DNA from: Nitzschia sp. DOCU1
Lineage: Eukaryota > Bacillariophyta > Bacillariophyceae > Bacillariales > Bacillariaceae
Reading direction: 5' to 3'
Assembly (NCBI GenBank): GCA_951394045.1
Contig: OX595993.1
Location: 558,001-622,000, forward strand
DNA: 64,000 nt
Part shown: positions 30,601 through 56,669 of the stretch, piece by piece
How positions within the stretch are numbered: position 1 is the first letter of the stretch
Layout: each line of letters opens with the position of its first letter
Notes under the pieces: generated by a model
The model's database searches: none
What the model was told of the DNA's origin: nothing
The model's input: only the letters and a program-made list of their open reading frames with translations
Position numbers and translations under genes: made by a program

Positions 30601-30847
30601 CGAGTCTTGGAGTCGGTGGGCCAATACTGTGGAGGTTGTGAAACTCAACGACAATTATTTGTCCGGTACTTTACCAGAAGCATATGCTTCTTGGAAAAAC
30701 ATTCGCGAGGCCAACTTCTCGATGAATTGCTTAGTGGGGACCATCCCTCTGGATTACGAGCTCGAATGGACGTCTTTAGAAATGAATGTTTCCGAGGTGC
30801 TGGGAATCCAACGTGAGGACTGCAATGAGGGAAACCAAACGAGTTAG
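27647..30847 (+). CDS. membrane-anchored leucine-rich-repeat protein, copy 1
   Basis: 1066 aa, single exon. The N-terminal ~140 residues are charged and low-complexity, with an exact 16-residue tandem duplication (NEDVERQVDVGGTATT at ~51-66 and 67-82). One membrane segment follows (LIVFLIVALTLGIALPL, ~144-162). Then come a ~150-residue cap with WSNQLRFL and a Cys pair, and ~28 plant-type LRRs of 24 residues (NNLTGTLPDSWSQW). Most repeats alternate between 'NVEIVYLYENNLTGTLPDSWSQW'-type and 'LSELALYQNSLTGTLPDAWSEW'-type units, so the real period is often 48 residues. There is no kinase or other signalling domain. The topology suggests an extracellular LRR surface for adhesion or recognition. 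An equal-length paralogue lies inverted 4.6 kb away. Confidence 0.88.
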   Translation: MEEGQKKTDKPGRYGEEDDAVASPRPPKRATPRREGDEKEVTLDSEKDEENEDVERQVDVGGTATTNEDVERQVDVGGTATTTNTPGVEDEVSVELQVDAYVVGDPPGEQRRINRTPQQSTIEATVIQNETQVEAQTWRFYRRLIVFLIVALTLGIALPLTLQDDNDDAFNTPSPTAAPELKDPWLVLQPIIGSELEDGSNEEKAYRWLTMEDQSGILDDPYTPEWRIVQRFVLANFYFATNGTGWSNQLRFLSKDDECTWKQTIPYFDGEGGIVDDRNITSLPAGVTTCDVQGRVESLRIAQNGLQNTIPSVLKHLSDLKELGLDGNAFDTSSIPAWLAHMTGLELLQLAGCRLRGTITTELESLTNLQQLWLSENDLTGTMPGSLFQALSELRVLSFYDNSLTGTLPHEIGLLSNLELIDLSTNALTGTLPESWNQLTNMEAVLLTQNKLTGALPHSWSGWSNLEFVFLTENNLTGTLPDSWSQWSNVELVYLYENKLTGTLPDSWSQWNALSDLVLYQNSLSGTLPDAWSEWPNVDIVYLFDNMLTGTLPNSWSRWTTLSELALGRNALTGTLPDAWSEWRNVDTVSLFDNNLTGTLPDSWSHWTALSGLFLHQNVLTGTLPDAWSEWTNVEILYLYENNLTGTLPDSWSQWNALSMLSIYGNFLSGTLPDAWCAWSNVEIVYLYENNLSGTLPDTWSGWSNVEQVYLYKNNLTGTLPNSWNQLSALSELSLDGNMLTGTLPNGWSKLTNLKYVWLYENSLSGTLPGEWSEWSSIEILYLYENNLTGRLPDSWSQWNALSMLSIYGNFLSGTLPDAWSVWPSVQVVYLFDNNLTGRLPNSWRQWTTLSDLALYGNSLTGTLPDEWGEWSNIQILYLFDSNLTGTLPDAWSEWSNVEIVSLYANNLTGTLPESWSQWTALSALVLYQNALTGTLPDAWSEWSNVEIVSLYANNLTGTLPDSWSQWATLSALSIRENSLSGLLPESWSRWANTVEVVKLNDNYLSGTLPEAYASWKNIREANFSMNCLVGTIPLDYELEWTSLEMNVSEVLGIQREDCNEGNQTS

Positions 30848-38400: not shown

Positions 38401-38664
38401 CTCAATATCGCGGGTAGCCTCTTTTTCATCTTCTTCTCGACGTGTAGTTGCTCGTTTCGGGGTATTAGTCGTAGTCGCCGTACCTCCGACGTCCACTTGT
38501 CGTTCTACGTCCTCGTTGTCCCCATTCTCACTACCGCCGCCGGCCATTTCTTTTTCATCTTCTAGTAGTGAAGTTGCTCGTTTCGGGGGCCGCGGGGAAG
38601 CGATTGAGTCATTTTCCTCACCATATCGTCCAGGTTTCTCTGTCTTTTGTGGGCCTTCTTCCAT
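35464..38664 (-). CDS. membrane-anchored leucine-rich-repeat protein, copy 2
   Basis: 1066 aa, single exon, exactly the same length as copy 1. ATG at 38664 (MEEGPQKTEK) is preferred to an upstream non-ATG extension because it matches copy 1. The architecture is the same: charged N-terminus with its own internal repeat (ERQVDVGGTATTTNTP twice), membrane segment LIVFLIVALTLGIALPL, cap domain and ~28 24-residue LRRs with alternating repeat types. The N-terminal 400 residues are nearly identical to copy 1, while the order and sequence of individual LRRs differ, as expected if repeats shuffle by unequal crossing-over or gene conversion. Flanks outside the coding region are not visibly similar. Confidence 0.88.
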   Translation of the reverse strand: MEEGPQKTEKPGRYGEENDSIASPRPPKRATSLLEDEKEMAGGGSENGDNEDVERQVDVGGTATTTNTPKRATTRREEDEKEATRDIEKDEENEEVERQVDVGGTATTTNTPGVEDEVSVELQVDAYVVGDPPGEQRRINRTPQQSTIEATVVQNETQVEAQTWQFYRRLIVFLIVALTLGIALPLTLQDDNDEAFKTPSPTAAPALKDPWLVLQPIIGSELEDGSNEQKAYHWLTMDDQSGILNDPYTPEWRIVQRFVLANFYFATNGTGWSNQLRFLSKDDECTWKQTIPYVDGDGGITDDRNITSLPAGVTTCDVQGHVESLRIAQNGLQNTIPRVLRYLSDLKELGLDGNSFDTSSIPAWLAGMTGLELLQLAGCRLRGTITTELESLTNLQQLWLSENDLTGTMPASLFQALSELRVLSFYDNSLTGTLPHEIGLLSNLEFLDLSTNAVSGTIPDSWTQLTNIEAVLLSQNKLTGTLPLSWSGWSNVEFVFLSENNLTGTLPNSWSQWTALSGLFLHQNVLTGTLPDAWSEWAALSELALYRNSLTGALPASWSEWSNVETVFIFDNNLTGTLPDSWSQWNALSELALYQNSLSGSLPDAWSQWSNVELVYLNENQLTGTLPDSWSQWNALSELALYRNSLSGSLPDAWSRWSNVEIMYLYENNLTGTLPESWSQWSTLYDLGLAFNALSGTLPDEWSEWSNIEILYLYENNLTGTLPDSWSQWNTLSELGLYGNFLSGTLPDAWSVWPSVQVVYLFENDLTGTLPNSWRQWTTLSELALYRNYLTGTLPDEWSELSNIQILYLFDNNLTGTLPSSWSQWSAISLLILDENSLTGALPDAWSEWSTVEFVSLHDNNLTGTLPESWSQWTALSVLVLYQNALTGTLPDAWSEWPNVQIVFLFHNAFTGTLPQSWSQWTLLSELSLDDNVLTGTLPHSWSQLTNLKYLWLYRNNLAGTLPDSWSQWTTLSTLSIRENALSGPLPESWSLWSNTVEAVELNDNYLTGTLPEAYAFWENILLANFSANCLVGTIPFEYELEWTSLQVNVSEVMGIQREDCTEGDP

Positions 38665-39703
38665 TCTTCTTCTTTCTATGCAATGCCGCAATTTTGGTTT
38701 TTCTGGACGACTTTAATTTGGTTTTGAAGCCAGACCGATGCTACCAGTAGTTACTATCAGAAAGGTGGGTCCTGTGGATGGATACAACAAACTACTAGCG
38801 AGTGGGTGGCAGGCTATCATTTGTGCCATGCTGCTGCTCCCTCCACCCGCTTCCGCCATCGAGTGCCAACACATCTCTATCGCAAAAAAAAAAGAGCCCC
38901 GTCATCGCTAGTGCACGTGCCTTTTGCTAAAAAATTAGGATAGCACTATCTGACGGCGATACCTACTAGGCATCGTCTCGTCGGGACAAATCCATTGAAT
39001 CTCCTTTTGCTCCTTGAGAACCGCTTGGTCGATGGTGTTGTTGTTGCTATCTTCCTCTGCTCCTATTGCTCTTTCTCAAGGGTAGCAATCAGAAGAAATG
39101 GTTGTTTGCCTTTTCCCGCCAAATCTTGCCGATTTGCTGGCGGTTGAGAGCAGTCCAATAAGTCAACGAAAGGGGCGATGACGGACGGCGCACGGGCGGA
39201 GCCGGCCGACACGCAAGAGTGCCAGTCGTTGTACTTGCCGGGAATAAAAGATCTCTCGACTCTACTACATGACGCTGTTCGGTTGGAGGATGCTACAAAC
39301 AATAGAGAATGCTGCTGGTTTCAATACTAGTCCTACGTCTAGAATCGCCAAGAGCCTTTGGATAGAGTATAGTAGTAGGAAGGAGTAATACTACTACCGG
39401 TACTAGTAGACTAGATGGTATCTTCCCCTCGACTTTGATTAGGTACTAGCTAGAATGCCACAAAACTCTAGACTCTATTACTGCATTTGTCTTCAACACC
39501 ATTAGAGCTAGCTCTTTAGGAAAGTAGATGGTACTTTGGCTCCTCCCGTGGGCGTATCCACGACCGGAGTCACGCCGGCCGGCTCGCGGCGGCAAACATC
39601 ACTCCAAACAAGAAGGCTCTTCCATGGTGATGGCGTTCCTGGCTCTTTTGCTCCTCCTTCATTCATCTTGCGTTTGGTGTTGTTGTTGCTAGACCCTAGC
39701 ACG
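38665..39703. promoter_or_regulatory. intergenic region upstream of LRR copy 2
   Basis: 1 kb of sequence with CTAGTA-rich stretches (39380-39500) and no supported gene. It separates LRR copy 2 from a divergently transcribed short protein and therefore holds both promoters. Confidence 0.45.
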
Positions 39704-41550: not shown

Positions 41551-44500
41551 ATGAAGATTGTACTGCTGGGATTCCTTCTCAGCCTGTCAACGACAGCCAA
41601 TGCCTTTACGATTCCCAAATCGGCATCTTCGTCCTTGCCTTCTACTACTACTCAACTCGACATGACTAAACGTGTCGTAGTGGTAGGCAATGGCATGGTC
41701 GGACAACGCTTCATGGAAAACTTGCTAGAGTTGGGTCAAGATTGCCAAATTGCCACGTTTTGTGAAGAACCCCGCGCCGCGTATAATCGCGTCAAACTCA
41801 CATCGTACTTTGAAACGCGCAATCCTAGTGATTTGAGCATGACCTCGGAATTTGATGCCGACGGCCGTACGGCCTGGTATCGTGACAACAATGTCGAACT
41901 CTACTTGGGAGATCGTGCCGTCTCGATTGATACTACCGCCAAGACTGTCACGGGGGCTTCGGGCACGGTCATTCCGTACGATGCCTGTGTCATGGCGACG
42001 GGATCTTTTCCCTTTGTGCCACCGATTCCTGGTAAACAACGTCCGGGCGTGTTTGTCTATAGGACAATTGAAGATTTGGAAAACATGTTGGCCTATGCGC
42101 AAGCCAACAATGTTCAATCGGCGGCGGTCATTGGGGGTGGACTCTTGGGCCTCGAAGCCGCCAAGGCTGTCAAAGACATGGGTATTACGTCTCATATTAT
42201 TGAATTTGCCGACATTTTAATGTGTCGTCAAATTGACAAGGGTGGACATAACGCTCTTGTGGGCAAAATTGAAGAAATGGGCTTGAAAGTCCATTGTGGT
42301 GCTCGTACCGAATCCTTTGTGGGTACCGATGGTACGACCGACCATGACAGCATGGCACCCGTGGCGGCTCTCAAATTTAGCAATGAAGATTGGGAAGATT
42401 TGCCAGTTCAAATGGTAGTCATTAGTGCTGGTATCAAACCCCGAGATGAGTTGGCACGTGAATCGGGGACTATTGAAGTGGGAGAACGAGGTGGCATCAA
42501 GGTCGATGATCAACTTCGTACTTCTCAAGAGGGTGTCTATGCGATTGGAGAAATCGCTCTCCATGAAAATTTCATTTATGGTTTGGTCGCTCCAGGATAT
42601 ACCATGGCAGGAGTATGTGCCAAGGTAGTGGCCAATGATTTGGGACTCTTGCCCTTTCCAGAAGGTGCCGAGTTGCCGGCCTTTACCGGTGCTGACATGT
42701 CCACCAAGCTCAAGTTGTTGGGATGTGATGTGGCCTCCTTTGGAGTCAATCAACCACGACCGGATGATATGGATGTCCAAGAACTGGTATGGAATGATCC
42801 CTTTATTGGAGTCTACCGCAAATTGATTTTCAACAAGGCCGGTACCAAACTTCGAGGTGGTATCTTGGTCGGAGATGCTTCGGACTATTCGACGCTTCAT
42901 CAATTGGCCATGAGTGACAAGGAATTACCGGAAGGTACAACTCCTGCCATGCTCTTGCCACCTCCTGCTGCCAAGTCGGCGGGTGGAGATGCTGCTGCTG
43001 CTCAAGACACTTCTGACCCCAACGCCCAAATCTGCTCGTGTAATGATGTGACCCGTGGGGCCATTGTCGGTGCCATCAAGGACCTGGGCGTGGAACAAGC
43101 TAGCTATGCCAATGTCAAGAAATGCTCCAAGGCTGGTACCGGCTGTGGTGGTTGCGAACCTCAGGTTAAGGCCATTTTGAAGGATACTCTGGAGTCGATG
43201 GGCAGCGCCGTCACCAATCACTTGTGTGAACACTTTGAGTACTCTCGTCCAGAACTTGTGGCTTTGCTCCGTACCAACCCCGATCCCACGTCTGTCGATT
43301 CCTTTGCCAAGGTTTTAGCAAAGCATGGAAAGGGGGACGGATGTGAAATCTGCAAGCCCACGATTGGATCGATTCTTGCCTCGCTCAACAATGAAATCAT
43401 TTTGGGTGGAGACCGCGCTCAACTTCAAGATACCAACGACCGTGCCCTTGCCAATATGCAACGCGGAGGTACCTACTCTGTCGTTCCCCGTGTGCCGGGT
43501 GGTGAATTGACTCCTGAACAATTGATTGTTCTCGGACAAGTCGCCCAAAAGTACAACTTGTACTGCAAGATTACTGGTGGACAACGTGTGGACTTGTTTG
43601 GTGCCGCCAAGCACGAACTTCCCGATATCTGGGAAGAATTGGGCCAAGCTGGATTTGAGTCCGGACATGCCTACGGAAAGGCCCTTCGTACCGTCAAGTC
43701 CTGTGTCGGTTCTACTTGGTGCCGATATGGTGTTCAAGATAGTGTTTCCTTTGCTGTCAGGGTCGAGAACCGCTACAAGGGTATCCGATCTCCCCACAAG
43801 ATGAAGTCGGCTGTCTCGGGATGCGTGCGTGAATGTGCCGAAGCCCAAAGCAAGGACTTTGGTATGATTGCCACCGAAAATGGATACAATCTTTATGTCG
43901 GCGGAAACGGAGGTGCCAACCCTGTCCACGCCGAACTCTTGGCTACGGATATCGACGAAGATACTGTCCTCAAGTACTTGGACCGTTACATCATGTACTA
44001 CATTTTGACAGCTGACCGATTGGAGCGTACGGCAGTCTGGCAACAAAAGTTGCCCGGCGGCAAGAACGGAGGTGGCCCCATTGAGCACTTGAAGGAAGTT
44101 ATCATTGAAGACTCCTTGGGTATTTGCGATGAATTGGATAAGCGCATGCAACACTTGGTTGATACCTACCACGATGAATGGGTAAGTGGACTCTCTCCTC
44201 GAATCATAACTCTTTCGATTGTTCTATAATACTCACGCATGACTTTCTTTCTATCATTTTTCAGGCGGAGGTTGTCAAGGACCCCAAGCTACGAGCACAA
44301 TTCAAGCAATTCGTCAACACGGACAAGACCATCAAGAAGGATGATATGATTGAATTCGTTGACATGCGTGGACAAATCCGACCCACCGATTGGCCCAAGG
44401 ATGGGCAGCCACAAACCCTTTGGAAGGCTCCCACGGTTGACATTTTTGCCAAGTCCCAAAAGTCATGGGTCGAAGTCGGAAGTGTGGATGATTTCCTCCC

Positions 44501-44951
44501 CAACGTTGGTACCCCCATCTTGTACGGTGACTCGCAATTGGCTGTCTTCAACAACGCACAGCGCGGAGAATGGTACTGCACACAAAACATGTGCCCGCAC
44601 AAGCAAGCCTTTGTTTTGTCGCAGGGTATCATCGGAGGAACAGCCGATGATACTCCCAAGGTCGCCTGCCCCTTGCACAAGAAAACATTCGACTTGCAAA
44701 CTGGAGAAGGCATCAGCGACGAAGAATTGAACATCTTGACGTTCCCCGTCAAGTTGGAGGGTAGCAAGGTCATGGTGGAGCTTCCTGCGGAAGCCGAAGT
44801 TGACGCTATCCTTGGAACTCATGGCTTACGAGTTCAAAAGTCTGACTGCGTCGACATTGCAGCCGATGCTCTCAAAGTCCCCAAGAGAGCCAACCCGTTC
44901 TACTCACGAAACAGTACGGAAACCCAATTGACGGTTATGGAAGAACTCTAG
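41551..44951 (+). CDS. nirB: NAD(P)H nitrite reductase, fused NirB-NirD
   Basis: Two exons, 41551-44181 and 44265-44951, with a phase-0 GT-AG intron, giving 1105 aa. A signal peptide ends in ANAFTIP, an ASAFAP-like site. The order is: FAD/NAD(P)H oxidoreductase (VVVVGNGMVGQRF; AAVIGGGLLGLEAA), one BFD-type [2Fe-2S] domain (CSCNDVTRG ... CSKAGTGCGGC), a second weaker one (HLCEHFEYSRPEL ... CEICKPTIGSIL), and the siroheme/4Fe-4S reductase halves with SCVGSTWCRYG and SGCVRECAEAQ. A C-terminal NirD Rieske-type domain follows the intron (CTQNMCPHKQ ... CPLHKKTFD). It reduces nitrite to ammonium. Prokaryotes usually split NirB and NirD, while fungi and some stramenopiles fuse them. Plastid location is suggested but not certain. 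Confidence 0.95.
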
Positions 44952-45237
44952 ATGCACAAAAAGAAACATATAGCCATCATTTTTGCTCAAAGCCATGCCA
45001 TCATTTTTACAACATTTCTCGATACTGTAGCTACTAGAGGAAAGATGGACGGAGTCCCCATGCTGTCAATAGTTTAGATAGTATTTCAGTTAATCTGGTT
45101 TCTCTAGTAATGGTATTGGTGGTGTGTATTTGCTCTAATAATAGTATTGGTGGTGTGTATTTGTTCTTCTAGCTACTAGCGGCAAGTATGCACTATAGCT
45201 TGCCCTTTGTTGTTCTTCCCCGCAGCCACCCTTCCAA

Positions 45238-45585
45238 CTATCGTCGTCGGGACAAAATGGATCGAATGCCACTCTTGACGCTTCTGGATTGGGAAGATGT
45301 GGTAGAGTTGTGGTCGGAGGCACTGTCGACCCAGTCACTCAGGGGAATGGAACCGGCTGGTACCTTGGAAGCTTCTAGATCCCAGTTGTTTCGGCGGAGG
45401 GTGCGTTGCTCATCGTCGGTCATATCTTGGAAGATTCGCACGGCCTCGTCTCGCACGGCATCGATTTGGTCTTTTGTGATGTACCCTTCGATGCCAAGTA
45501 CGATGCGGGCTTCGGTGGCGATGTTTCGTGCATCGATGAAGCGAAGATCAAGTTCGCGAGTCAAAATGCTTTCAATGCTTGGCAT
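45238..45585 (-). CDS. LDLRFIDAR small protein A
   Basis: 115 aa. Member of a seven-copy local family. MPSIESILTRE leads into the invariant LDLRFIDAR, then IATEARIVLGIEGYITKDQI, DAVRDEAVRIFQ and DDEQRTLRRNN, a predicted helical core of ~75 residues. A Ser/Asp/Thr-rich linker and a basic tail (SGIRSILSRRR) follow. No signal peptide, membrane segment, cysteine or catalytic motif is seen. It is nearly identical to B on the other strand, with which it shares promoter sequence. Function unknown. Conservation of the core across divergent copies argues that it is a real, selected protein. Confidence 0.8.
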   Translation of the reverse strand: MPSIESILTRELDLRFIDARNIATEARIVLGIEGYITKDQIDAVRDEAVRIFQDMTDDEQRTLRRNNWDLEASKVPAGSIPLSDWVDSASDHNSTTSSQSRSVKSGIRSILSRRR

Positions 45586-46217
45586 GGTGGTGGTGAAGAA
45601 TAAGCTGAACTGTTAAAAATGTCGTAGTAGCTTGTTGAAAGCTTGGGTTTGAGAAAATTGTGAGAGAGAATTGATGTTGTTTGGCCGGGATAGGAGCAAG
45701 AAGTCGTAGTAAGGCCGGATGGTATCTTCGGAGATATTTTCGGTAGAATGCCAGTTCTGCTTGATTCCGCAAGAAGCATTCTGCTCCTAATTACCAAGTC
45801 AAACATTTATAACCCAAAACCGTTGAGGAGCGTTTTTGTTCCTTGAAAAACCGGCACTATCCCTATTGAGTAACTCCCATCGAAAGGACATTTAAGGAGG
45901 TCCTTTTTATTAGTCCCAACCAGATCGGTGGCATATTAAGCTTTCGAAATTTCGCCGGGGTACGTTTTAAGCTCAGAACATGATGATCAGAAAGGCATAT
46001 CTGCTCAAATGGACTAATTGACCTCAAAATTTTATATCGGTATTCTGAAAAGCATTCAAGAACGGGCATGCTAGAAAATTCCTCCGTAAATTCTACCTAG
46101 TCTGCATCCGGTATAACTCGCTCCATCCCGACCAAAGCTGAAGTTGGTCATCTCACAATTTCTCTACCCGAGCATTCAGCAAGCTACTACGACTTTTTCT
46201 TCACCACCAACACCACC
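45586..46217. promoter_or_regulatory. divergent promoter of small proteins A and B
   Basis: 632 bp between the two head-to-head start codons. The outer ~90 bp on each side are inverted copies and are candidate core promoter and 5' UTR. The central ~450 bp is unique and without a supported gene. Confidence 0.5.
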
Positions 46218-46565
46218 ATGCCAAGCATTGAAAGCATTTTGACTCGCGAACTTGATCTTCGCTTCATCGATGCACGAAACATCGCCACCGAAGCCCGCAT
46301 CGCACTTGGCATCGAAGGGTACATCACACAAGACCAAATAGATGCCGTGCGAGACGAGGCCGTGCGAATCTTCCAAGATATGACCGACGATGAGCAGCGC
46401 ACCCTTCGCCGAAACAACTGGGATCTAGAAGCTTCCAAGGTACCAGCCGGTTCCATTCTCCTGAGTGACTGGGTCGACAGTGCCTCCGACCACAACTCTA
46501 CCACATCTTCCCAATCCAGAAGCGTCAAGAGTGGCATTCGATCCATTTTGTCCCGACGACGATAG
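46218..46565 (+). CDS. LDLRFIDAR small protein B
   Basis: 115 aa, nearly identical to A with conservative changes (A for V before LGIEGY, Q for K in YITQDQ, L for P in the linker). It has the same layout: short N-terminal SIESILTRE, invariant LDLRFIDAR, the LGIEGY turn, the RDEAVRIF helix, a Ser-rich linker and the basic end SILSRRR. Divergent from A across a shared 632-bp region. The high similarity including UTRs marks a recent inverted duplication or ongoing gene conversion. Confidence 0.8.
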   Translation: MPSIESILTRELDLRFIDARNIATEARIALGIEGYITQDQIDAVRDEAVRIFQDMTDDEQRTLRRNNWDLEASKVPAGSILLSDWVDSASDHNSTTSSQSRSVKSGIRSILSRRR

Positions 46566-46697
46566 TTGAAAAGAATGCAGCGGGGAACAACAAAGGGCAA
46601 GGTATAGTGCATACTTGCCGCTACTTGTATTACTACTAGAACAACGAATACTACACCCAGACTACTAATGCTAGAGAATACTCTATTGGATCACATA

Positions 46698-47232
46698 CTA
46701 CTGGTAGTTCTTATGGGTTGTGAGATGTGGCACCTGCTTTAAAGCAATAGCGATGTTTTCTGCACCAATCAAATCATCATCATCTTCCTCGTCATCTTCA
46801 TCAAAACCACCGATTCTGTTCCCTTGGAGGTCCAAAGTCCGTAGATTTGGAAGATGCTCCAATGTAGTAAAGATTTGTTCTGAAGGAGCAACTGTTGGAA
46901 TCAAATGATTCGACTGTCCGCTGAGCGACTCCTGTTGAGACTAGGTACTGACCTCGAGAGCTACATTTCAGCCGGAGATGGAATGCGTTTCTGGCAAGTC
47001 CGTGATTGTGGCTTAAAAACTGGTCCCATTGCTGGAAGTTTCCACGACTGATGCCCCATAGTAGCTCGGAGGGAACATCAGTGCGAATATCAAGGAGTTT
47101 CACCCTGCCACGAAAAAGGACAAATTCTTGAAATGGATCCAGTACCACGAAGGAGGCAATGTTCCTCAAGAGACTGTCAGGAATTACGACAGTACTACTT
47201 GAGTCACTAACTTCCTCTGGGAAGTTCATGGC
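46698..47232 (-). pseudogene. LRR-type protein fragment, frameshifted
   Basis: A minus-strand frame from an ATG at about 47229 (MNFPEEVSDSSSTVVIPDSLLRNIASFVVL) looks like the N-terminal segment of a diatom LRR protein. Near 46935 the sense shifts by one frame into LSGQSNHLIPTVAPSEQIF, then LEHLPNLRTLDLQGNRI, one clear LRR with an acidic loop, ending soon after (HLTTHKNYQ). With only 1-2 repeats and a frame change too tight for an intron, it looks truncated and decayed. Confidence 0.4.
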
Positions 47233-47508
47233 ACTGCAACAAGGACCCAGCCAATATGTTTGACACAATCCCAAGTTACTCTAGAAGAGCAAACGCGAAA
47301 TCGCAGAGTCGTATTCGAATATGCAATGCAACGGAACAAAAATACTTCACTTTTTTCTGTCTCTCGTCATCGTCGCCGGCGGCCACAGCAGTCGATGAAA
47401 GACGGCATCCCCGGCGTATTGTACGTAAATATACTACATGTACATATGTACCTACCGGTACATATATTCAGTCGAATACTGCGATTCAAAAGACGGCTTG
47501 AGTCAGTC

Positions 47509-47550
47509 CAGGGGTCAATTGTTCGCAACGTTCCCCACAATTGACCCCTG
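47509..47550. mobile_element. 42-bp hAT-like micro-element
   Basis: Perfect 14-bp inverted repeats CAGGGGTCAATTGT / ACAATTGACCCCTG enclose 14 bp. The element is flanked on both sides by the direct 8-bp repeat AGTCAGTC (47501-47508 and 47551-47558). TIRs starting CAGGG with an 8-bp target duplication are the hallmark of the hAT superfamily. At 42 bp it has no coding capacity and is essentially two fused termini. Confidence 0.75.
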
Positions 47551-47558
47551 AGTCAGTC

Positions 47559-48012
47559 CATTCCATCAAATCGAATGGACCCTGCCGACTACATACAGTA
47601 GTTCGGAACTACAGTACTAATCGGGGGCCATCGACGATGACGAGATTAATAGCGGGGCTTTGTAATTAAATTATGTGGAGAGCTATGATATGAATCGCAG
47701 ACTCCCCAAAGCGGACAGATGCTAATTCCGAGCTCGTAACACTTTGATCTCTCTCCACGGCCGATAGACCGCAGATGATGTCCGTCCGTGCCGTGCCGTG
47801 CGTGTGTGCGTGCGTGTGGGTGACGCCTAAGTTAGTTCCCTATCTTTCTTCTTTCTTCTCTCTATTGTATTCTCGATCACAACGACAAGATGACACAAAA
47901 ATCCTGACGTATACCTTGTTGTTGAGTCTAGTGTGCCTTTGGCAACCAGCCCTGGAGTCCAACATCCCACTAATACAAGACGACAAGGAAGTAGAAGAAG
48001 AATGTGATAAAG
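47559..48012. other. 5' flank of the unknown 779-aa gene
   Basis: An alternative plus-strand frame from 47775 (MMSVRAVPCVCACVW ... YTLLLSLVCLWQPALES) overlaps the start of the next gene in another frame. It might supply an upstream exon, but no splice junction is convincing. Confidence 0.35.
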
Positions 48013-50349
48013 ATGAGGATGTTGGGCAAAGGACGCTTTTGGATCTCTCGTCGTTGTTGTCGTTATTCCATCGCGCCGATCGTTCGATGCTTGCACTTAA
48101 CCTTCGTATCCGCCAATAAATCGCGTCATGATTCACTATTTCAAGACTCCTTGACTATTCTTCGACCAGAATGGTGGCATTTATCACCCCACTTTGGTGC
48201 TGCGCTGCAAGCCTGTGCTCTCAAGGGCAATCTACTTGGATTATCCGACAGCCTTCGGAGAAGCAGGAGCGACAACCAGACGAAACGCCGACAGGTTGAT
48301 TCCTTCTCGTCATCGCCTTTGATTCGGCCTTGTCAGTTGGCCAAATCTCTCTTCTTTCAAGCCCAACCAGGAGCACCGATTCGATTAATAAAGACGAAAA
48401 GTATGGTCGCTGCCTATTTGACGACACCCCAGATCATGGGGACGTGTGCCGGCTTGGCTCTGCAGGGCAAAGACAACATCGCCCAAGTCTTACGACAACG
48501 ACATGGCATTAAATCGAATCATATCCATGAAACGGAATGGACAGGTGTTTCCTTGGCACGATGGAAGGAATTGATTAGTCTCTTACAACCACTTGGGAGT
48601 GGCCACGACAGCGAGGACAACAATCTACGAGGCGTACTCGAAACAAGTTTGGTATCCTCCATTTGGAACATGGCTGTATGGGAACAGTGCTGCTCGTTGG
48701 CGTCTAGCACAAAGACGAGGCAATACTTACTACTAGAGTATCTATCGGCCGTGGAACAAGTGTCGGGTCGAGACATCTTTGTCAAGGACTGGGAATCCAT
48801 CCAACACCAAGTGTTGGGACAAGCCGATGAAGAAGAAAATCAAATGGAAGACTCCAATGTTCCATCTTCCTTGCTACTGGAACGCCTACTGGATGTTTCG
48901 ATGGATACGGCTGCTAGAGGTACTTTACATTCGTCTGGCATTTGTGATCCCCAAACTGCCACGGATGACACAACAGAGGTGGCTGCTAGAACCATGGAAG
49001 CGCTATGTGCTACTCTGGCAAGTCGCCAAGCCAACCAGACAATCAAAACAACAACACCCAATGGCTATTATGGGTTTGATTCGGGTCGTGTCAAGCCAGA
49101 TTGTGTCGAAGTTGCTGTCCGAGAAGTTTTGGATTTTCTTTTGTGGGATCCTCAAGTCGGGAGATTTGATTTGGAGCGCTTGCCGAAATCGGCCGCACCG
49201 GAACTGGTCCGCTTTTATCAATTGCAACAAGACGAGTATGGCATGTCTGAAGAATTTGGCAAACAATGGTTTGACTTGTGTAGCAATCTTCCAGGATGTG
49301 ACTACTTGTCGTCAAGTCCACATGGCAAACCCTACGAACTCACACCTACCTTGAGGAACATGGCCAAAATCCTTCAACGTTTACTCTACCATTGGCACCC
49401 TCCTCCTCCAGAAAACGAAGAATGGAATTCTCTTGCTGAATTGCAAGATGCTTGGCAATTTCAAGATTTGAAACTCTCCTTGGGTACGCATACCGAAAAA
49501 GCCAAAATGTCTCCTGAAATTTGGATCCACGAAGTCGCTACTCTCCAACGGCAGGGCCAAGAGAATGCGATTGAATTACGACTACGTTGTGATTGGGCCA
49601 GAAATACAGGATTTGCGACGGTGACCCATTTACGAGTATTACAAGACGAACAATTGGATACTGCCACCACGGAAAAGCTCATGAGAGCTATCGCAGACTC
49701 TCATCCTCCAACTCTGCACTACATGCGCGTCACACTCTCCATTCTTGCCTTGGCATTGTTGGGTGACTCTGGTGTCGAGCAAAAACGGACCAGCAGCTTG
49801 ACAGAGCTTGTTCTTGCTTTGCTATCGGCTCGATATGGAATCGATCGTCGACAACTCATGTACATTACAGCAACGTCGGATTTGGAGCGGGAGGAGCTGG
49901 CATTTCGAAAAGCGCAACGAGACAGTGACCACATACTCAAGTGTGCGATTCACCAGGTTTGTGACTTGTTGGTGGCATCCAATAGCACAGAAGCATCCTC
50001 CTACAATCGTATGGACGGCCCAGAAGCCCAGCTATTGGCGTGGATCTTGAGCAAGACTCCAGATCTCGAGTCGTCATCGACCGAATCATCGTCATCATCG
50101 TCTATGAGCATTCATAGGTTTCCGGACCGAGACTTGGAAGAGACTATACTCAAGCTACCAAAAGATATACTGACTACTGGATCTTTGAAAGGTCAAATTC
50201 AAAATCATTGGGCACTTGCCGGGCACGTCTTGACCAATATCATTGATTACAAGTCCGGGCACGCCTCATCCTTGCAAGTTTTGGGACGATTGCGCCTAAG
50301 AGATGTACCTCGATTTGTTTGGCTTGCCAAGCACTTTCATCTACCGTAG
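48013..50349 (+). CDS. large protein of unknown function
   Basis: About 778 aa from the ATG at 48013 (another in-frame ATG lies at 48019, and a GTG three codons upstream). The first ~40 residues are basic and Arg/Cys-rich and could be an organelle leader. The true N-terminus is uncertain because another frame overlaps it. The rest is mainly helical, with conserved-looking blocks: MVAAYLTTPQIMGTCAGLAL, DSGRVKPDCVEVAVREVLDF, RFDLERLPKSAAPELVRFYQ, FGKQWFDLCSNLPGCDYL and ELTPTLRNMAKILQRLL. The second half contains a possible regular fold (LGDSGVEQKRTSSLTELVLALLSARYG) and a Ser run. I do not recognise the family and see no catalytic signature. Frame length and codon content make it a real gene. 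Confidence 0.7.
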   Translation: MRMLGKGRFWISRRCCRYSIAPIVRCLHLTFVSANKSRHDSLFQDSLTILRPEWWHLSPHFGAALQACALKGNLLGLSDSLRRSRSDNQTKRRQVDSFSSSPLIRPCQLAKSLFFQAQPGAPIRLIKTKSMVAAYLTTPQIMGTCAGLALQGKDNIAQVLRQRHGIKSNHIHETEWTGVSLARWKELISLLQPLGSGHDSEDNNLRGVLETSLVSSIWNMAVWEQCCSLASSTKTRQYLLLEYLSAVEQVSGRDIFVKDWESIQHQVLGQADEEENQMEDSNVPSSLLLERLLDVSMDTAARGTLHSSGICDPQTATDDTTEVAARTMEALCATLASRQANQTIKTTTPNGYYGFDSGRVKPDCVEVAVREVLDFLLWDPQVGRFDLERLPKSAAPELVRFYQLQQDEYGMSEEFGKQWFDLCSNLPGCDYLSSSPHGKPYELTPTLRNMAKILQRLLYHWHPPPPENEEWNSLAELQDAWQFQDLKLSLGTHTEKAKMSPEIWIHEVATLQRQGQENAIELRLRCDWARNTGFATVTHLRVLQDEQLDTATTEKLMRAIADSHPPTLHYMRVTLSILALALLGDSGVEQKRTSSLTELVLALLSARYGIDRRQLMYITATSDLEREELAFRKAQRDSDHILKCAIHQVCDLLVASNSTEASSYNRMDGPEAQLLAWILSKTPDLESSSTESSSSSSMSIHRFPDRDLEETILKLPKDILTTGSLKGQIQNHWALAGHVLTNIIDYKSGHASSLQVLGRLRLRDVPRFVWLAKHFHLP

Positions 50350-50463
50350 CATACTATGCTCGTAGGCCGTGTCTACTGTTTTGTATCATTAACGACAGGA
50401 AAGGCAAAACACGATATAGAAGGCTACTTTCAATGTACAATCACTTCACTCCTCGTTCGCGCT

Positions 50464-51543
50464 TCATTTGGCTCTGTCCATCGTCTCTTGCACAATTTCG
50501 GCAACTCGAGGATGATCATACAGAAAGTGTCCCACATTTGGAATGACTTCAAATTGCGAATTGGGGAAAAGCTGTTGGTACTGTCGACTGGCGCTTTCGG
50601 GCAGGAGGTCGTCACCAGCATGTACAATCGAGACGGGAAAGTCGGATTCGGCCAACAACTTTTGGCAAATGGGAACATAATCGTGTTCCATACCCAAACT
50701 CAGAAAATTCGCATAACACGCCATTCCTCCCGTCATGCCAGCTTCAGTTTCGGGCATTTCTCCTTGTGCTGCTCGATGATAGTGAAGGCCAAATTCATTT
50801 TGACGTTCCGCCAACGTTTCATCAGTTTCTTGCGGAAGACTCGCAAAATCCATGTATCGTTTCAAAAATCTTTCATATTCCTCAACGTGTTGACGATTGC
50901 CTTGTTGACGAATCTTGTCTCCTACCACTGAAAAAAAATCAGGAAGTTCCTTGGATGGCATGGTCAAGACCGAGGCGGGTACCAACAACGTCAAGGAACG
51001 AACACGATCGGGAAATTCTGCCGCATACATGGTAGCAATCAATCCACCAAATGAATGACCGACCAAATCCATTTTTTCATCACTACTACTCTGCAATAAT
51101 CGACGACGAATTCGTTCCACATCGGCGACCTGAGCTCCAATTCCCAATTGTTCTTCCAATACTTTCGTTCCAGGCCACATGCCTTTGGTAGGCCACGTCT
51201 TAATGATTCGAGTGGAATGTCCACACCCTCGTGCATGATAGAGATATACGCCGGGCAGGCTTTGGCAGAGTTTCCATGGATGGCTTGGAGCAATGGAAGG
51301 CCCGCCATGAATGGCAAGGATAGGACGTTGGCTAGTCTTTTCAGAAGGCGAAAAGTAAAAGAGATCGACTCCACCCGGCATGTGCCACACTGTCTTTGCT
51401 GAAGAATACAGGGATTCGTCGTCAAAAGTATCTTGGGTGGCCGTGCTAGCGACCATGCCCGGCACGTAAAGGGGGGCCCGCATCTTTTTGTAGGCCCAAT
51501 ACAAACCAGCCACGACGGCCCAAAACGCTACCAAGTACATCAT
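50464..51543 (-). CDS. membrane-anchored alpha/beta hydrolase, proline iminopeptidase-like
   Basis: 359 aa from the ATG at 51543 (the frame extends six codons to a TTG). An N-terminal membrane anchor (MMYLVAFWAVVAGLYWAYKK) is followed by the hydrolase fold: oxyanion-type AIHGGPS (~78-83), RGCGHST, nucleophile elbow VGHSFGG with Ser ~164, the acid in VHAGDD and the catalytic His in NVGHFLYDHP. HGGPS and RGxGxS resemble the prolyl aminopeptidase/PIP branch (S33), although epoxide-hydrolase-like or lipase activity cannot be excluded. It converges on the unknown 779-aa gene with only ~110 bp between stop codons. Confidence 0.85.
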   Translation of the reverse strand: MMYLVAFWAVVAGLYWAYKKMRAPLYVPGMVASTATQDTFDDESLYSSAKTVWHMPGGVDLFYFSPSEKTSQRPILAIHGGPSIAPSHPWKLCQSLPGVYLYHARGCGHSTRIIKTWPTKGMWPGTKVLEEQLGIGAQVADVERIRRRLLQSSSDEKMDLVGHSFGGLIATMYAAEFPDRVRSLTLLVPASVLTMPSKELPDFFSVVGDKIRQQGNRQHVEEYERFLKRYMDFASLPQETDETLAERQNEFGLHYHRAAQGEMPETEAGMTGGMACYANFLSLGMEHDYVPICQKLLAESDFPVSIVHAGDDLLPESASRQYQQLFPNSQFEVIPNVGHFLYDHPRVAEIVQETMDRAK

Positions 51544-51979
51544 GGCTCTGTATTTGGACAAGATGGATGAGACTTTGAATCATAGGGTTGTGGAAATGGA
51601 TCCATGCCAGGAAGGAATGGCGAAGAAACGCAATCATGAGAACACAGAGCTCGGATCGCGACTAAAAAGATACGGCGGGAGTCATTTTGTGACTGACTGC
51701 ACGTTTGAATGACATGACTATTGACGACCCTTTCGACTACAGCATCATCGAAACACCAAAGAGCACTATTGGCTGTCCCTACCGTCAAACCATTGTGACG
51801 ACCTCACTCAAAATAGTGTTCTGGTTATGCATTGAATAGTAGCGAATTGGTAGAACATGAAATACAAACTTGCGTCAAAAGTAATAGTATCATTAGAAAT
51901 GTTTGATTAGTAGTAGTAGTAATTTAAACCAATGCATGGTTCTAGCAAATCCCCCAAGTCCCCTGGTGTGTGTTTGTCT
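51544..51979. other. intergenic, no gene seen
   Basis: About 440 bp between the hydrolase start and the 3' end of small-family gene C. Nothing recognisable beyond promoter DNA. Confidence 0.45.
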
Positions 51980-52318
51980 CTATCGGCGACGAAAGAGACT
52001 TCGAATACTACTTCGGCTGTTGGATGATGATGACGAACCAACAGAGGGTTGTTCCAGTTCTGAAGATTCATACGAACCGGCATCGCTGCCACAGGGAGTC
52101 TTGATGGCCTCCAATTCCATGTTGAGTTCTTGGAGCCGGCGGCGTTCCGGAAGAGGCTTGGAGTGGAAGATTCGAATTGCTTCGTTGCGAAGTTCCCGAA
52201 GTTGATCTTTCGCGGGGTATCCTTCAATACCCAGAGCGATGCGAGCCTCGGTAGAGATGGCTCGGGCATCAATGAAGCGAAGGTCGAGTTGGCGAGTGAG
52301 GTAGCTTTCGACGGACAT
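51980..52318 (-). CDS. LDLRFIDAR small protein C
   Basis: 112 aa. ATG at 52318 (MSVESYLTRQ) is chosen over an upstream in-frame extension because it aligns with the starts of D and E. It has the invariant LDLRFIDAR, then AISTEARIALGIEGYPAKDQL, RELRNEAIRIFHSK, ERRRLQELNMELEAIKTP, a Ser-rich linker (SSSSNSRSS) and the basic tail SIRSLFRRR. It shares >80% of residues with D and ~300 bp of upstream DNA, so C and D are a direct tandem pair. Function unknown. Confidence 0.8.
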   Translation of the reverse strand: MSVESYLTRQLDLRFIDARAISTEARIALGIEGYPAKDQLRELRNEAIRIFHSKPLPERRRLQELNMELEAIKTPCGSDAGSYESSELEQPSVGSSSSSNSRSSIRSLFRRR

Positions 52319-53220
52319 GGTGTTGTTGGTGGTGGTGTTGAAACCTTGAAAGTTGCTTTGTTGCTCGAAGCCTGTTGGATTTTGTGAGATGAGAGATCGA
52401 AGTTCAAAATGTGATGGGAAAACGATTTCGGATATCGCGGAAAAACCGCGGCGCAAAGAACTACCGAAATTAGAGTCCGGGTTGAATGGAATACCGTAGA
52501 TAGAGGGCTTGTTGGAGGAGTTTTACTCTACCATACGACTATTACCTCGAGTATCTCTTTGGGCGTATTGAAGACTTTTACCTCTATGACCGTGTAATAC
52601 CTTGTATCATGTAGAGCTGAGAATGTCCTGTGATATTTGTCTTTGTTCTATGCATCTTCCACCTATTCCGCACGAAGGGCCAGAATATTCCTCGGAAAAG
52701 CGGTGGAATTATTTGAATTGCCCGATGACAGTCCCGAACATTTCTCTGCGTTTAAAATCTTTGACAGTCTCGGATTGATTTTCCGGAGAAATGTCAATTT
52801 AAAGGGCACTAATAGAGAAGATCACAAATGGGGTGCTTTTGGCTACTTGCCGAGAAACGAGCTTTTTCCAACCTACTGGTCGATCAAGTCGACTTCGAAA
52901 AAGCCCGCTCGCCGCGGTCCTTCTGCACGAACTGACGCCAAACGTCGTGCGAGCAAAGCCAGCCCCTTTCGTCAATCATGACACACTCCAGAAAATAGCG
53001 TCCGGACGAAGATCCACTCGGCAATAGCTGCTACCGTACTTCTACTTTCCAGATGTCATGATAGCTTTCGATCTCTTAGTCGTACACCAATATAATTTCT
53101 ACGCATTTTAATGGAAAAATTGTCTAATAGCCGCATCATCATTGATGTTTAGTTGTTGTGAATAAACCATTGCATGGTTCTAGCAAACCCCGAAGTTCCC
53201 TGTAGCAAGAATCGTCCTCT
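52319..53220. other. spacer between small proteins C and D
   Basis: 900 bp. The left part is the shared promoter-proximal segment also found upstream of D (GAGATCGAAGTTCAAAATGTGATG). The part around 52613-52900 has blocks that recur upstream of E (CCTGTGATA near 52630 and 53850; GAGCTTT with TCCAACC near 52860 and 54250). A plus-strand 114-codon frame at 52637-52981 is not accepted as a gene because its counterpart near E is interrupted. Confidence 0.5.
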
Positions 53221-53559
53221 CTATCGGCGAAAGATATTTCGAAGACCTCGTCCACTGCTTGATGAGGATGATGAGCCAACAGAGGGTTGTTCCGAAGAAA
53301 TATAGGAATCAGTATCGCTGCTGCCACAAACACTGGGAGTCTTGATAGCTTCCAATTCCATGTTGAGCTCTTGCAGCCTGCGGCGTTCCGCAACTGGCTT
53401 AGAGTGGAAGATTCGAATCGCTTCGTTTCGAAGCTCACGAAGTTGATCCTTGGCAGGGTATCCTTCGATACCAAGAGAGATGCGAGCTTCGGTAGAAATG
53501 GCACGGGCATCAATGAAGCGAAGGTCGAGTTGGCGAGTGAGGTAGCTTTCGACGGACAT
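53221..53559 (-). CDS. LDLRFIDAR small protein D
   Basis: 112 aa from the ATG at 53559. Core: MSVESYLTRQ, LDLRFIDAR, AISTEARISLGIEGYPAKDQL, RELRNEAIRIFHSK and ERRRLQELNMELEAIKTP, followed by a long Ser run and the basic tail GLRNIFRR. Its nearest relative is C. Changes cluster in the linker while the core is nearly fixed, the pattern expected under purifying selection on the helical part. It has the same upstream block as C, with a poly-C/G stretch just before the ATG. Function unknown. Confidence 0.8.
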   Translation of the reverse strand: MSVESYLTRQLDLRFIDARAISTEARISLGIEGYPAKDQLRELRNEAIRIFHSKPVAERRRLQELNMELEAIKTPSVCGSSDTDSYISSEQPSVGSSSSSSSGRGLRNIFRR

Positions 53560-54402
53560 CGTTTTTGGGGGTGGTGGCGGTGTTGAAAACTTGAAACTTG
53601 AAAGTTGCTTCGTTGCTTTGTTGCTCGAAGCCTGTTGGATTTTGTGAGACGAGAGATCGAAGTTCAAAATGTGATGGGGCAACGATTGCGGATATGGCGG
53701 AAGAACCGCGGCCAAAGAAGTACCGAAAGTTTACGGTAGTGTGGTAAAGAAGAAGTACAAATGATAGGGCTCGTTGTTGGAGGACTTTTGCGTCTATGAC
53801 CGTGGAATAGGTAGTAGTGCGTGTACGGGCTTTGGATGTCCTGTGATAGTTTGTCTTTCTTCTGTGCAGCTTCCATCTATTCGGCAAGAAGGAGACAAGC
53901 TTCTTTAGCACGCGGCAGAACTACCTCCATTCGTGTCCCTATCTAAGGAAAGACGGCGGGGGACGTTTTTGTTGGCGGACTTTATCTTCTATGACCGATT
54001 GCTATTAAATATGTACTTACTGAGCTTTCTTTGTCTTGTGTGATAGTTTGCTTCTGTTCCATCCCGCTTTTGCCTATGTCACAAGAATGGAAAGAACTTT
54101 TTCAAACAGCGGGGAAATTCATTCCAATAGCCCGCGGGAATCGTTGTTATTGCCTAGGTGCTTCTCCTCAATTTGAAAGGCTATAATAAAGATTCTTTGG
54201 TCTCATTCTCACATATTGGGGAGCTATTTTCAACTTGTCGGGAGACGAGCTTTATCCAACCAAGTCTCAAGATAGTCCGGTGATGGGGGATTTACCGAAG
54301 ATACCCTTGTGAAAGAAAGTTGACGCACTTGGTTTGATCACAATTTTGAACGCCGGAAACCATCAACAAACCAGCAAACTCAACTCTACCACGAAAAACA
54401 TC
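53560..54402. promoter_or_regulatory. divergent promoter region of small proteins D and E
   Basis: 843 bp between head-to-head start codons. It contains a duplicated upstream block (TGTGATAGTTTG-type sequence at about 53845 and 54045, followed by related sequence around TCCATC). The same block lies upstream of C. No gene is supported. Confidence 0.5.
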
Positions 54403-54744
54403 ATGTCCGTCGAAAGCTACCTCACTCGCCAACTTGACCTTCGATTCATTGACGCTCGCGTCATTGCAATTGAGGCACGCCACTCTCTTGGTATCGAGGG
54501 ATACCCTTCCCGTGATCAACTCGGTGATCTCCGCGCCGAAGCAGTCCGCATCTTCCAAGCCAAGTCTACAGATGAACGACGAGCCCTCCAACAAATGAAC
54601 ATGGAGCTAGAGTCCCTCAAGATCCCTTCCGGTTCCAGTGCCGTTTCTCTTGATGGATCTGACTTTGATTCTATGTTGTCCGATGAACTGTCAAGGACAT
54701 CTACCGAAAGCCGAAAGGGAATTCGAAACCTTTTCCGACGATAG
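54403..54744 (+). CDS. LDLRFIDAR small protein E
   Basis: 113 aa from ATG 54403. MSVESYLTRQ, LDLRFIDAR, VIAIEARHSLGIEGYPSRDQL, GDLRAEAVRIFQAK, ERRALQQMNMELESLKIP, then a Ser/Asp-rich linker and the tail GIRNLFRR. It is more diverged from C and D than they are from each other, but all invariant core positions are kept. Transcribed away from D. Function unknown. Confidence 0.8.
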   Translation: MSVESYLTRQLDLRFIDARVIAIEARHSLGIEGYPSRDQLGDLRAEAVRIFQAKSTDERRALQQMNMELESLKIPSGSSAVSLDGSDFDSMLSDELSRTSTESRKGIRNLFRR

Positions 54745-55218
54745 TCTATTGCAAGACTTGGTGAAGGGGGCGCTAAATGATTTTTGCTAGAATCTATATT
54801 ACTACAAGTATACTAGACACAATTTTACGGCTTACATGAATTGTCATAGCTACTGTAATTTTGGTTGGTTCGATTGCGGTGATTTTCCTGTCTTTTGCGC
54901 ACAAGGTTTTCAAAAGTGCAAGATACTGAGTTTTGAAGGTGGTACTAGATAGTATTCCTGCAGACCCCCACCCTTGCGCCAAAGATATCAGAGCTCCTAC
55001 ATACAACCTACACTTTTGGCGTTCAAGAGTTTGGGCGGCTATGATACTTTTGGCCCTGGTCAACTGTCAATCATGAGGTGGGATATAGTTCATGAACGAA
55101 TACTTGGTTCCATACTACGAATGCAAATATCACGACAGCAAAGTGTATGGAAAATCTTGTAATTCTAATTTTTATAACCCCAAAATTGTGATGTAACCCG
55201 TTTGCCCACATCGAACAG
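54745..55218. other. convergent spacer between small proteins E and F
   Basis: About 470 bp of 3' flanking DNA for E and F. No supported gene. Confidence 0.5.
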
Positions 55219-55542
55219 CTATCGTCGGAAGATGCTTCGCATAGCTCGTCGGCTTGAGTCGTCGGAGGAGACGGATTGGAAGTCTGAGCTTCTGTCACTG
55301 CAAGATCCACCTGAAATCTTGACGGCTTCGAAGGCAAAGCTCATTTGACGCATGGCGTTTTGCTCTTCAGCGGGCATGCTCTGGAAAATTCGGATGGCTT
55401 CATTTCGGAGATTTCCGATTTGGTTCTTGCTGGGGTAGCCCTCAATGCCGAGGGATAGTCGGGCTTCAGTGGCGATCTTACGGGCGTCGATGAACCGAAG
55501 ATCAAGTTCACGGGTGAGGAAGCTTTCGATGGAAGTAGACAT
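55219..55542 (-). CDS. LDLRFIDAR small protein F
   Basis: 107 aa, the shortest member. MSTSIESFLTRE, LDLRFIDAR, KIATEARLSLGIEGYPSKNQI (Asn in place of the usual Asp before Gln), GNLRNEAIRIFQSM and EEQNAMRQMSFAFEAVK, a short Ser/Asp linker and the basic tail AMRSIFRR. Transcribed toward E. It is equidistant from the A/B and C/D/E subgroups, suggesting an older split. Function unknown. Confidence 0.78.
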   Translation of the reverse strand: MSTSIESFLTRELDLRFIDARKIATEARLSLGIEGYPSKNQIGNLRNEAIRIFQSMPAEEQNAMRQMSFAFEAVKISGGSCSDRSSDFQSVSSDDSSRRAMRSIFRR

Positions 55543-56309
55543 GGTGGTGATTGGAAATCGGTATGTTTAGGTACGTGATGTGTTTCCGATTTGATGGAAG
55601 TTGATTTTGTGGGGCAAGTTTGGGCGCTGGGGAGCTTATTCCCGCGATACTGCACGACCGGAGAAAAAGTCTCGTCATACGGAGAAAAAGTTTCGTCACG
55701 AGTGCATTCAATGTCCCCTATGAAGAATGCGGACGAACGCAACGCGGTCATCGAAGGCATTCTAAGGAAAGCTGAAAGCACTACTCTCTAAGTAACTACT
55801 TAAGTACTGGAAGACGGTCTTGGTTTTGATGACTCATTTTTAAGCTCACATTGCACATTGTGACTGTTGACACTTTATCGACATGGAGCAGTAGAGGAAA
55901 GCCCGCTCCAATCCTGCTCACAAAATAAAAATTATTAGATGGCAAATTGCATAGAATGTTGTTGTAGTAAAATGGCTCTGCCCGTAAAGGCGTTTGACAA
56001 AAAGAGGTTGGGCACGTTTGACATAACCCAATAACTCGGTATTGAGGAGCCACTTAGAGCTCGAGCGTGTTGCAAGGAGAAAGTAGCGCCCGAGGAACTG
56101 TCAATCCGACCAGCATCCAGCTTTTGACAATTCCACATGGGGTAGTATGGGACCTTTCTTTAGCAAGATCGAATCTCTGCGCCGCCCTGATGGCTTTTGA
56201 TGTGCAAGACATGCATCGGGGTGTGCGTTTTCTTGTCTCACAAAATTGACTTCCATCACAACTTGAAAGATTATTTACTTTACTTTCCACTTCCATCAAC
56301 ATCATCATC
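55543..56309. promoter_or_regulatory. divergent promoter region of small proteins F and G
   Basis: 767 bp between head-to-head start codons, the third such head-to-head pair in the cluster. Upstream of F is a duplicated GAGAAAAAGT(C/T)TCGTCA (about 55662 and 55681). No gene is supported. Confidence 0.5.
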
Positions 56310-56669
56310 ATGACTCTCTCCCTCGAAAGCATCTTGACCCGCGAGCTTGACCTTCGATTCATCGATGCTCGCACCATTGCCACAGAAGCCCGTCTTTCCC
56401 TTGGTATCCAGGGCTACCCAACCCAAGATCAAATCTCTGATATTCGCGACGAAGCCATCCGAATCTATCGCTCCAAGCCCATGCACGAACAACGGACACT
56501 CCAAGAAATGAACAGGGAATTGGAAACCATCAAGACGCCCGCGATGCGATCCATGTCCGTGGCCAGTACAAGCTCCAACTCTGATCTTCTTTCCATCACC
56601 TCCGAAATTGAAGGCTCTTCGTCCCGCCGAAGAAGCAGCGGGGGTCTCCGGGGTATTTTTCGCCGATAG
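56310..56669 (+). CDS. LDLRFIDAR small protein G
   Basis: 119 aa, the longest member. MTLSLESILTRE, LDLRFIDAR, TIATEARLSLGIQGYPTQDQI, SDIRDEAIRIYRSK, EQRTLQEMNRELETIKTP, a Ser-rich linker (SSSRRRSSG) and the basic tail GLRGIFRR. Transcribed away from F. It has Gln in LGIQGY where others have Glu, and Tyr in RIY where others have Phe. Function unknown. Confidence 0.8.
   Translation: MTLSLESILTRELDLRFIDARTIATEARLSLGIQGYPTQDQISDIRDEAIRIYRSKPMHEQRTLQEMNRELETIKTPAMRSMSVASTSSNSDLLSITSEIEGSSSRRRSSGGLRGIFRR

What the first reader, a model, noticed from the sequence alone, without database searches (positions are those of the whole stretch)
45238..56669. Seven-member cluster of an unrecognised small-protein family with an invariant LDLRFIDAR core
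Seven open frames of 107-119 codons lie within 11.4 kb, in orientations -,+,-,-,+,-,+. All carry LTR-(E/Q)-LDLRFIDAR, a second block EAR..LGI-(E/Q)-GY..(D/N)Q(I/L), a third block EA(V/I)RI(F/Y), a variable Ser/Asp-rich linker and a basic C-terminus of the form hR-x-(I/L)-(F/L)-x-RR. The core is kept while linkers and UTRs diverge, so selection is on protein. The members have no signal peptide, membrane segment or catalytic residues. The head-to-head pairs A/B, D/E and F/G suggest paired expression. A helical adaptor with a basic tail that could contact membrane or nucleic acid is one hypothesis. I know of no named family with this signature.
Basis: partly seen in the sequence, partly recalled or inferred. 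Interest (0 to 1): 0.87.

Follow-up and report, generated by a model that had tools for sequence, protein, structure and literature searches.

The report
Unnamed diatom small-protein gene family
Seven look-alike small genes in this diatom-like stretch are real and belong to a larger, widely shared but unnamed protein family with a compact helical head and a charged loose tail, and most copies carry the same short DNA signal just upstream, so they are probably switched on together, although what they do is still unknown.

Summary
Seven intact frames of 107-119 codons lie at the stated coordinates and orientations with the stated blocks. They are 7 of 22 members found in this 52-Mb genome. 175 database homologues were collected, nearly all from unnamed contigs, some perhaps of the same or a sister species; five are from the non-photosynthetic diatom Nitzschia sp. 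Nitz4. No family was found in Pfam, NCBIfam or PDB sequences, and no relative was confirmed in viral or prokaryotic contigs. The core is under purifying selection (C versus D: dN 0.018, dS 0.49). AlphaFold2 gives a confident four-helix head (mean pLDDT 93) and a disordered tail; no PDB fold stands out. The tail is an acidic Ser-rich linker with a basic tip. New here: a sense-strand element, TCACA(AAAT/ATTT/TTTT), 52-98 nt before the ATG in 15 of 22 members against 0 of 45 other ORFs. Best reading, inferred: co-expressed adaptors whose head binds a conserved partner and whose tip binds an acidic surface.

The parts
45238..45585 (-). family member A, 115 aa
46218..46565 (+). family member B, 115 aa; 97% identical to A
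51980..52318 (-). family member C, 112 aa
53221..53559 (-). family member D, 112 aa; tandem copy of C
54403..54744 (+). family member E, 113 aa
55219..55542 (-). family member F, 107 aa
56310..56669 (+). family member G, 119 aa; modelled: helices 5-13, 17-31, 39-55, 58-75, tail disordered
45210..45595 (.). left arm of the A/B inverted repeat (96% complementary)
46208..46593 (.). right arm of the A/B inverted repeat
45655..45665 (-). upstream element TCTCACAATTT of A
46151..46161 (+). upstream element TCTCACAATTT of B
52378..52389 (-). upstream element TCTCACAAAATC of C
53638..53649 (-). upstream element TCTCACAAAATC of D
54338..54346 (+). upstream element of E, loose form only (TCACAATTT preceded by A)
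56238..56246 (+). upstream element TCACAAAAT of G

Best explanation
The seven genes are part of a conserved, repeatedly duplicated family of small soluble-looking proteins, found here in a genome that looks like a diatom's and with one named diatom relative. Shown: open frames under selection on the protein; a confidently predicted head of about 75 residues made of four helices; a variable acidic, Ser-rich linker and a short basic tip in most members; a shared upstream element on most copies in this genome. Inferred: the head is a protein-binding module that docks to one conserved partner through the nearly invariant charged residues (E6, R11, R16, D19, R21, E26, K75 in G numbering). The linker is a phosphorylatable spacer, and the basic tip holds the protein on an acidic surface such as a membrane face, a nucleic acid or another protein. 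The shared element makes the copies respond together, with copy number tuning the dose and the linkers and tips giving each copy its own placing. In short: a family of co-expressed adaptors or regulators, not enzymes.
For: Core under purifying selection (11 of the 22 members). Confident four-helix model: 10-residue blocks from 11 to 70 have mean pLDDT 91-98 (full length). Nearly invariant polar residues over 114 aligned sequences. Charge split over 173 of 197 proteins: core -0.4, linker -1.8, last 15 residues +4.0; linker acidic in 136, tip at least +3 in 140. Same plan in database homologues. Strict upstream element in 15 of 22 members versus 0 of 45 other ORFs, none on the opposite strand in either set. 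Compatible upstream peptides in 12 of 22 homologues with read-through leaders, 0 of 2000 shuffles reaching 12 (partly post hoc). Retained in the non-photosynthetic Nitz4, which argues against a role only in photosynthesis.
Against: No partner, location, expression or phosphorylation data. No fold match that would name the head. The tip has no amphipathic signal beyond its composition. In 33 of 173 proteins the tip is not at +3 or more. The two long members (230-241 aa) end differently, so the basic tip is not universal. 7 of 22 members lack the strict element and 2 of 22 the loose one.
Confidence: 0.4

Rival explanations
1. The head binds DNA or chromatin, in the manner of an HMG-box or helix-turn-helix, and the basic tip adds affinity: a family of small chromatin or transcription regulators.
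Confidence: 0.2
2. The basic tip is the working part: it binds acidic membranes directly, with the linker as a phospho-switch, and the head oligomerises.
For: Last 15 residues hold at least 4 K/R in 137 of 189 and a W in 85 of 189; linker rich in Ser/Thr and acidic in 136 of 173.
Against: No excess hydrophobic moment over shuffles at helix or strand angle; the head, not the tip, is the conserved part.
Confidence: 0.15
3. The tip is a cyclin-docking motif (RxLF type) and the proteins are small cell-cycle inhibitors.
For: Window members end in R-x-I/L-F/L followed by R; such motifs are known from cyclin inhibitors (recalled, no call).
Against: Only 34 of 189 C-termini hold R/K-x-L/I-F/L/I/M; other members end in tips like KFWSTRRR-type or RGWLKRTFS-type.
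Confidence: 0.05
4. Decaying or non-coding copies, a mechanical artefact of open frames.
For: Recent near-identical pairs exist (A/B; C10 pair).
Against: No stop inside any of the 22 matches (the two TAGs are matches that run past the gene's own end); purifying selection; 175 database homologues, two of them from a transcriptome-derived set.
Confidence: 0.02

Closest known systems
HMG-box domain (PF00505; LEF1 structure 2lef)
Prokaryotic helix-turn-helix domains (pSK1 Par 8csh, GerE 1fse)
   Same: Partial alignments of 45-52 residues or columns.
Another unnamed family of this genome (L055, L056 and the weakly similar L073)
   Same: Small proteins without a Pfam match, two near copies in tandem, same upstream element.
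   Different: Not compared with the present family; no resemblance evident by eye. L055 and L073 share only 26% over 102 residues.

Membership tests
Any Pfam-A family | detectable match of the window members | tested here: not met
   0 of 7 window members at E<=1. Wider: 114 members at E<=10 touched 47 families, 25 shown, best E 0.0018 in 3 members (Vasculin), scattered; cut-offs are not printed there. Two long and three other proteins: nothing over a cut-off
Any NCBIfam family | match at E<=1 | tested here: not met
   0 of 7
HMG-box (PF00505) | sequence-profile similarity to HMG boxes | tested here: not met
   hhalign probability 0.2%; reversed control 0.8%, best column-shuffled control 1.7%; one search likewise
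HMG-box (PF00505) | three-helix HMG fold | tested here: inconclusive
HMG-box (PF00505) | DNA binding | not testable with these tools
   no assay
Helix-turn-helix regulators | HTH fold | tested here: inconclusive
Cyclin-docking (RxLF) inhibitors | conserved R-x-L-F type motif across the family | tested here: not met
   34 of 189 C-termini
Viral protein family | homologue in viral contigs | tested here: inconclusive

The most novel reading that the evidence does not exclude
A regulatory layer of this lineage not described so far: a broad family (22 copies here) of small adaptors with a new helical domain, driven as one set by a dedicated upstream element that is also used by a heat-shock-factor-type gene, other unnamed families and an LTR-type mobile element, so that the family is part of a common response programme.
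Probability: 0.25. Interest if true: 0.75.

Novelty: new variant of a known kind. Interest (0 to 1): 0.45.

Why it matters
Many diatom genes have no known relatives (recalled). This family is compact, confidently modelled, strongly constrained, present in many copies and retained in a non-photosynthetic diatom, so it is a tractable entry to lineage-specific biology. The shared upstream element makes a direct test of joint expression possible from RNA-seq, and may be a promoter class of its own in this lineage.

Tried and rejected

Errors of mine: the filter meant to drop family members did not work (its 48 'non-family' rows included family members); one search repeats the count with a working filter (45 non-family rows; 4 more dropped for short upstream sequence). 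The extraction script had a wrong pattern, that wrong strand handling and it stopped with an error; one search replaces both. In one search the L013 row was cut at its C-terminus and carried upstream residues, and the L019 entry was likewise not the exact gene; alignment A2 (used) holds that row.
Full report
What is there. Seven intact open frames of 107-119 codons lie at 45238-56669 in the orientations given. Their alignment has 38 invariant columns, mostly in the first 75 residues. The window lies on contig C9 of a genome of 52 Mb in 63 contigs. Nearby frames look eukaryotic (an LRR protein, a Rieske protein, a Glyco_transf_49 protein), and five named homologues come from the diatom Nitzschia sp. 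Nitz4.

The family in its own genome. Three protein queries of different divergence found the same 22 places: seven on C9, pairs on C10 and C15, nine on C4, and one each on C1 and C7. One search added only two rows at E 0.16 and 0.39. None of the 22 matches has a stop inside. Twenty members are 107-137 aa; two (C1 and C7) are 241 and 230 aa. The long form has nine database homologues, one of them 99% identical to it, and conserved stretches in its C-terminal half (9 sequences). In a tree of 194 core sequences the own members lie in several places among homologues from elsewhere, and the 11 long forms group together (support 100/96). With 76 columns many forks are unresolved. Much of the diversity therefore probably predates this species.

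Selection. Computed for 11 of the 22 members (C9, C10, C15; 55 pairs; Nei-Gojobori in my own script). Core values where synonymous sites are not saturated: C/D dN 0.018, dS 0.49; C15 pair 0.063 and 0.39; A/B 0.012 and 0.06; C10 pair 0 and 0.04. For the 51 other pairs dS is 0.71 to saturated and core pN/pS 0.28-0.52. Tail pN/pS for those pairs (0.39-0.79) rests on poor alignment. A/B and the C10 pair are nearly identical through the coding sequence with a few tens of bases of matching flank, while no further repeats were reported in most of the 612 and 729 nt between the main arms. That suggests recent gene conversion, or rapid loss of similarity in the spacer; this is inference.

Relatives elsewhere. 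The profile searches gave 199 and 202 proteins at E<=1e-3, 120 listed in each; the first scored only the 8000 best candidates. With the nine, 175 different proteins were in hand. Most come from unnamed contigs. At least six have a core identical or nearly so to an own member (P0001, P0014, P0124, P0133, P0134, P0167) and may be from the same or a sister species. Named among those listed: five from Nitzschia sp. Nitz4 and two from a transcriptome labelled Tiarina (in full Tiarina fusa, a ciliate, recalled), which may be prey or contamination; I did not test that. Nitz4 is an apochlorotic, i.e. non-photosynthetic, diatom (passages of PMC11960938), so a purely photosynthetic role is unlikely. No relative was confirmed in viral contigs or prokaryotic genomes; each scan used one peptide pattern. 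PLSDB plasmids gave no match with one query.

Anatomy. AlphaFold2 models helices 5-13, 17-31, 39-55 and 58-75; the 78-residue core alone has mean pLDDT 93.0 and pTM 0.80, and in the full-length model residues 82-112 are below 50. Residues conserved in at least 90% of 114 sequences are E6, L9, R11, L13, R16, F17, I18, D19, A20, R21, E26, A27, L31, G32, G35, Y36, E48, F53 (Y in G itself) and K75. Of 197 proteins (175 plus the 22 own), 173 had a recognisable core and a tail of 25-75 residues and were measured; the other 24 were dropped. Mean net charge is -0.4 for the core, -1.8 for the linker and +4.0 for the last 15 residues; 136 linkers are acidic and 140 tips are at least +3. Kinase-type motifs are frequent (159 of 173 with S/T-x-x-D/E; 102 with R-x-x-S/T) but no control was run, and in a Ser/Asp-rich stretch they are expected. 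The hydrophobic moment of the tip equals that of shuffles at the helix angle (above them in 73 of 173) and is lower at the strand angle.

A shared upstream element. In the 600 nt upstream of 19 members (three near-duplicates dropped) the word CTCACAA or its complement occurs in 13. TCACA followed by A or T lies on the sense strand within 130 nt of the ATG in 20 of 22 members (antisense 4 of 22; in three bands further upstream 1, 3 and 2 of 22 sense and 0, 1 and 4 antisense). The strict form, C/T/G-TCACA-(AAAT, ATTT or TTTT), was written down after seeing the family's own sequences; it is in 15 of 22 (0 antisense) and in 0 of 45 other ORFs of at least 180 aa in the window and nine fetched regions, on either strand (loose form: 4 of 45 sense, 8 of 45 antisense). 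Those 45 are mechanical ORFs whose first ATG may not be the true start. Fisher's test gives 5e-10, but paralogues are not independent. The strict sites start 52-98 nt before the ATG. In A/B and the C10 pair the element lies outside the reported repeat arms. Genome-wide, TCTCACAAAATC occurs 39 times against 3 for the reversed control, 6 of them in this family, and TCTCACAATTT 161 times against 7. I fetched 20 of the 33 sites of the first word outside the family. By my reading, 12 of 20 lie 19-124 nt before the ATG of a frame of at least about 90 codons; no control was run for that count. Among them are an HSF-type DNA-binding gene (L066), a thioredoxin-like/DUF4395 gene (L071), two near copies of an unnamed gene (L055, L056) and a weakly similar third (L073). 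Four of the 20 (L057-L060) are copies of one stretch with only a 30-codon frame; four (L063, L067, L068, L072) had no such frame close by. Among the first 100 listed TCTCACAATTT sites at least 12 pairs lie 5.12-5.15 kb apart. Two such pairs were checked: direct repeats of at least 368 and 368-370 nt at 99.7% and 99.5%, LTR-like, with the element 36-47 nt before the end of the repeat. I did not look for a reverse transcriptase between them.

Across organisms. Homologues listed with a read-through leader give a glimpse of their 5' sequence. Of 22 with at least 18 leader residues, 12 hold a peptide compatible with the element in one of three frames; shuffled leaders average 2.3 and none of 2000 reaches 12. 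Cautions: I had seen the pattern in four of these leaders before writing the test, peptides are ambiguous evidence for DNA, distances range from 36 to 135 nt, and at least four of the 12 are close relatives.

Reading. The element is on the coding strand, within a narrow range of distance, and shared by an LTR-like repeat. That fits an initiator-type promoter element or a position-bound factor site used by a limited set of genes. The family is therefore probably expressed as a set. The proteins look like adaptors: a constrained, non-enzymatic-looking head, a spacer, and a basic tip. The partner, the place and the process are unknown, and I put 0.4 on the adaptor reading against 0.2 for a nucleic-acid-binding head.

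Limits. No expression data, no named proteome collection beyond the listed hits, no atomic coordinates for surface analysis, and only part of the genome could be read. Divergent pairs are 6 of 12 neighbouring pairs within 5 kb (my count), too few to claim a preference.

Noticed in passing
upstream of the family members; L054-L073: Sense-strand TCACA(A/T) element 52-98 nt before the ATG of most family members, also upstream of an HSF-type gene (L066), a thioredoxin/DUF4395 gene (L071) and an unnamed gene in copies (L055, L056, weakly L073).
   Followed up: partly
L089-L092 (C1:3584700, C1:3589846, C6:2547400, C6:2552546): The same element sits near the end of LTR-like direct repeats about 5.1 kb apart that recur as near-identical pairs in the genome.
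   Followed up: partly
L018 (C1:172286) and L020 (C7:8617): Long family members of 230-241 aa with further conserved stretches (FRKVVS, NPL, R-x-D-x-L) and nine database homologues; a sub-family of its own.
   Followed up: partly
45210-45595 / 46208-46593; L045:4201-4588 / 5318-5705: Near-identical divergent gene pairs whose identity fades just outside the coding sequence: possible gene conversion between palindrome arms.
   Followed up: partly
27647-30847 (+) and 35464-38691 (-): Two similar-looking LRR proteins of about 1070 aa in opposite orientation (seen in the ORF list; not aligned).
   Followed up: no
9837-14369 (-): A 1510-aa frame with a 3'-5' exonuclease domain (PF01612), possibly of a mobile element.
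   Followed up: no
41551-44951 (+): A frame that looks like nitrite reductase (by eye) followed by a Rieske frame (PF13806), possibly one gene with an intron.
   Followed up: no
P0071, P0141: Two homologues in a transcriptome labelled Tiarina; prey, contamination or transfer not resolved.
   Followed up: no
P0072, P0132: Database names 'zona occludens toxin' and 'predicted phage tail protein' on family members are very likely wrong automatic names.
   Followed up: no
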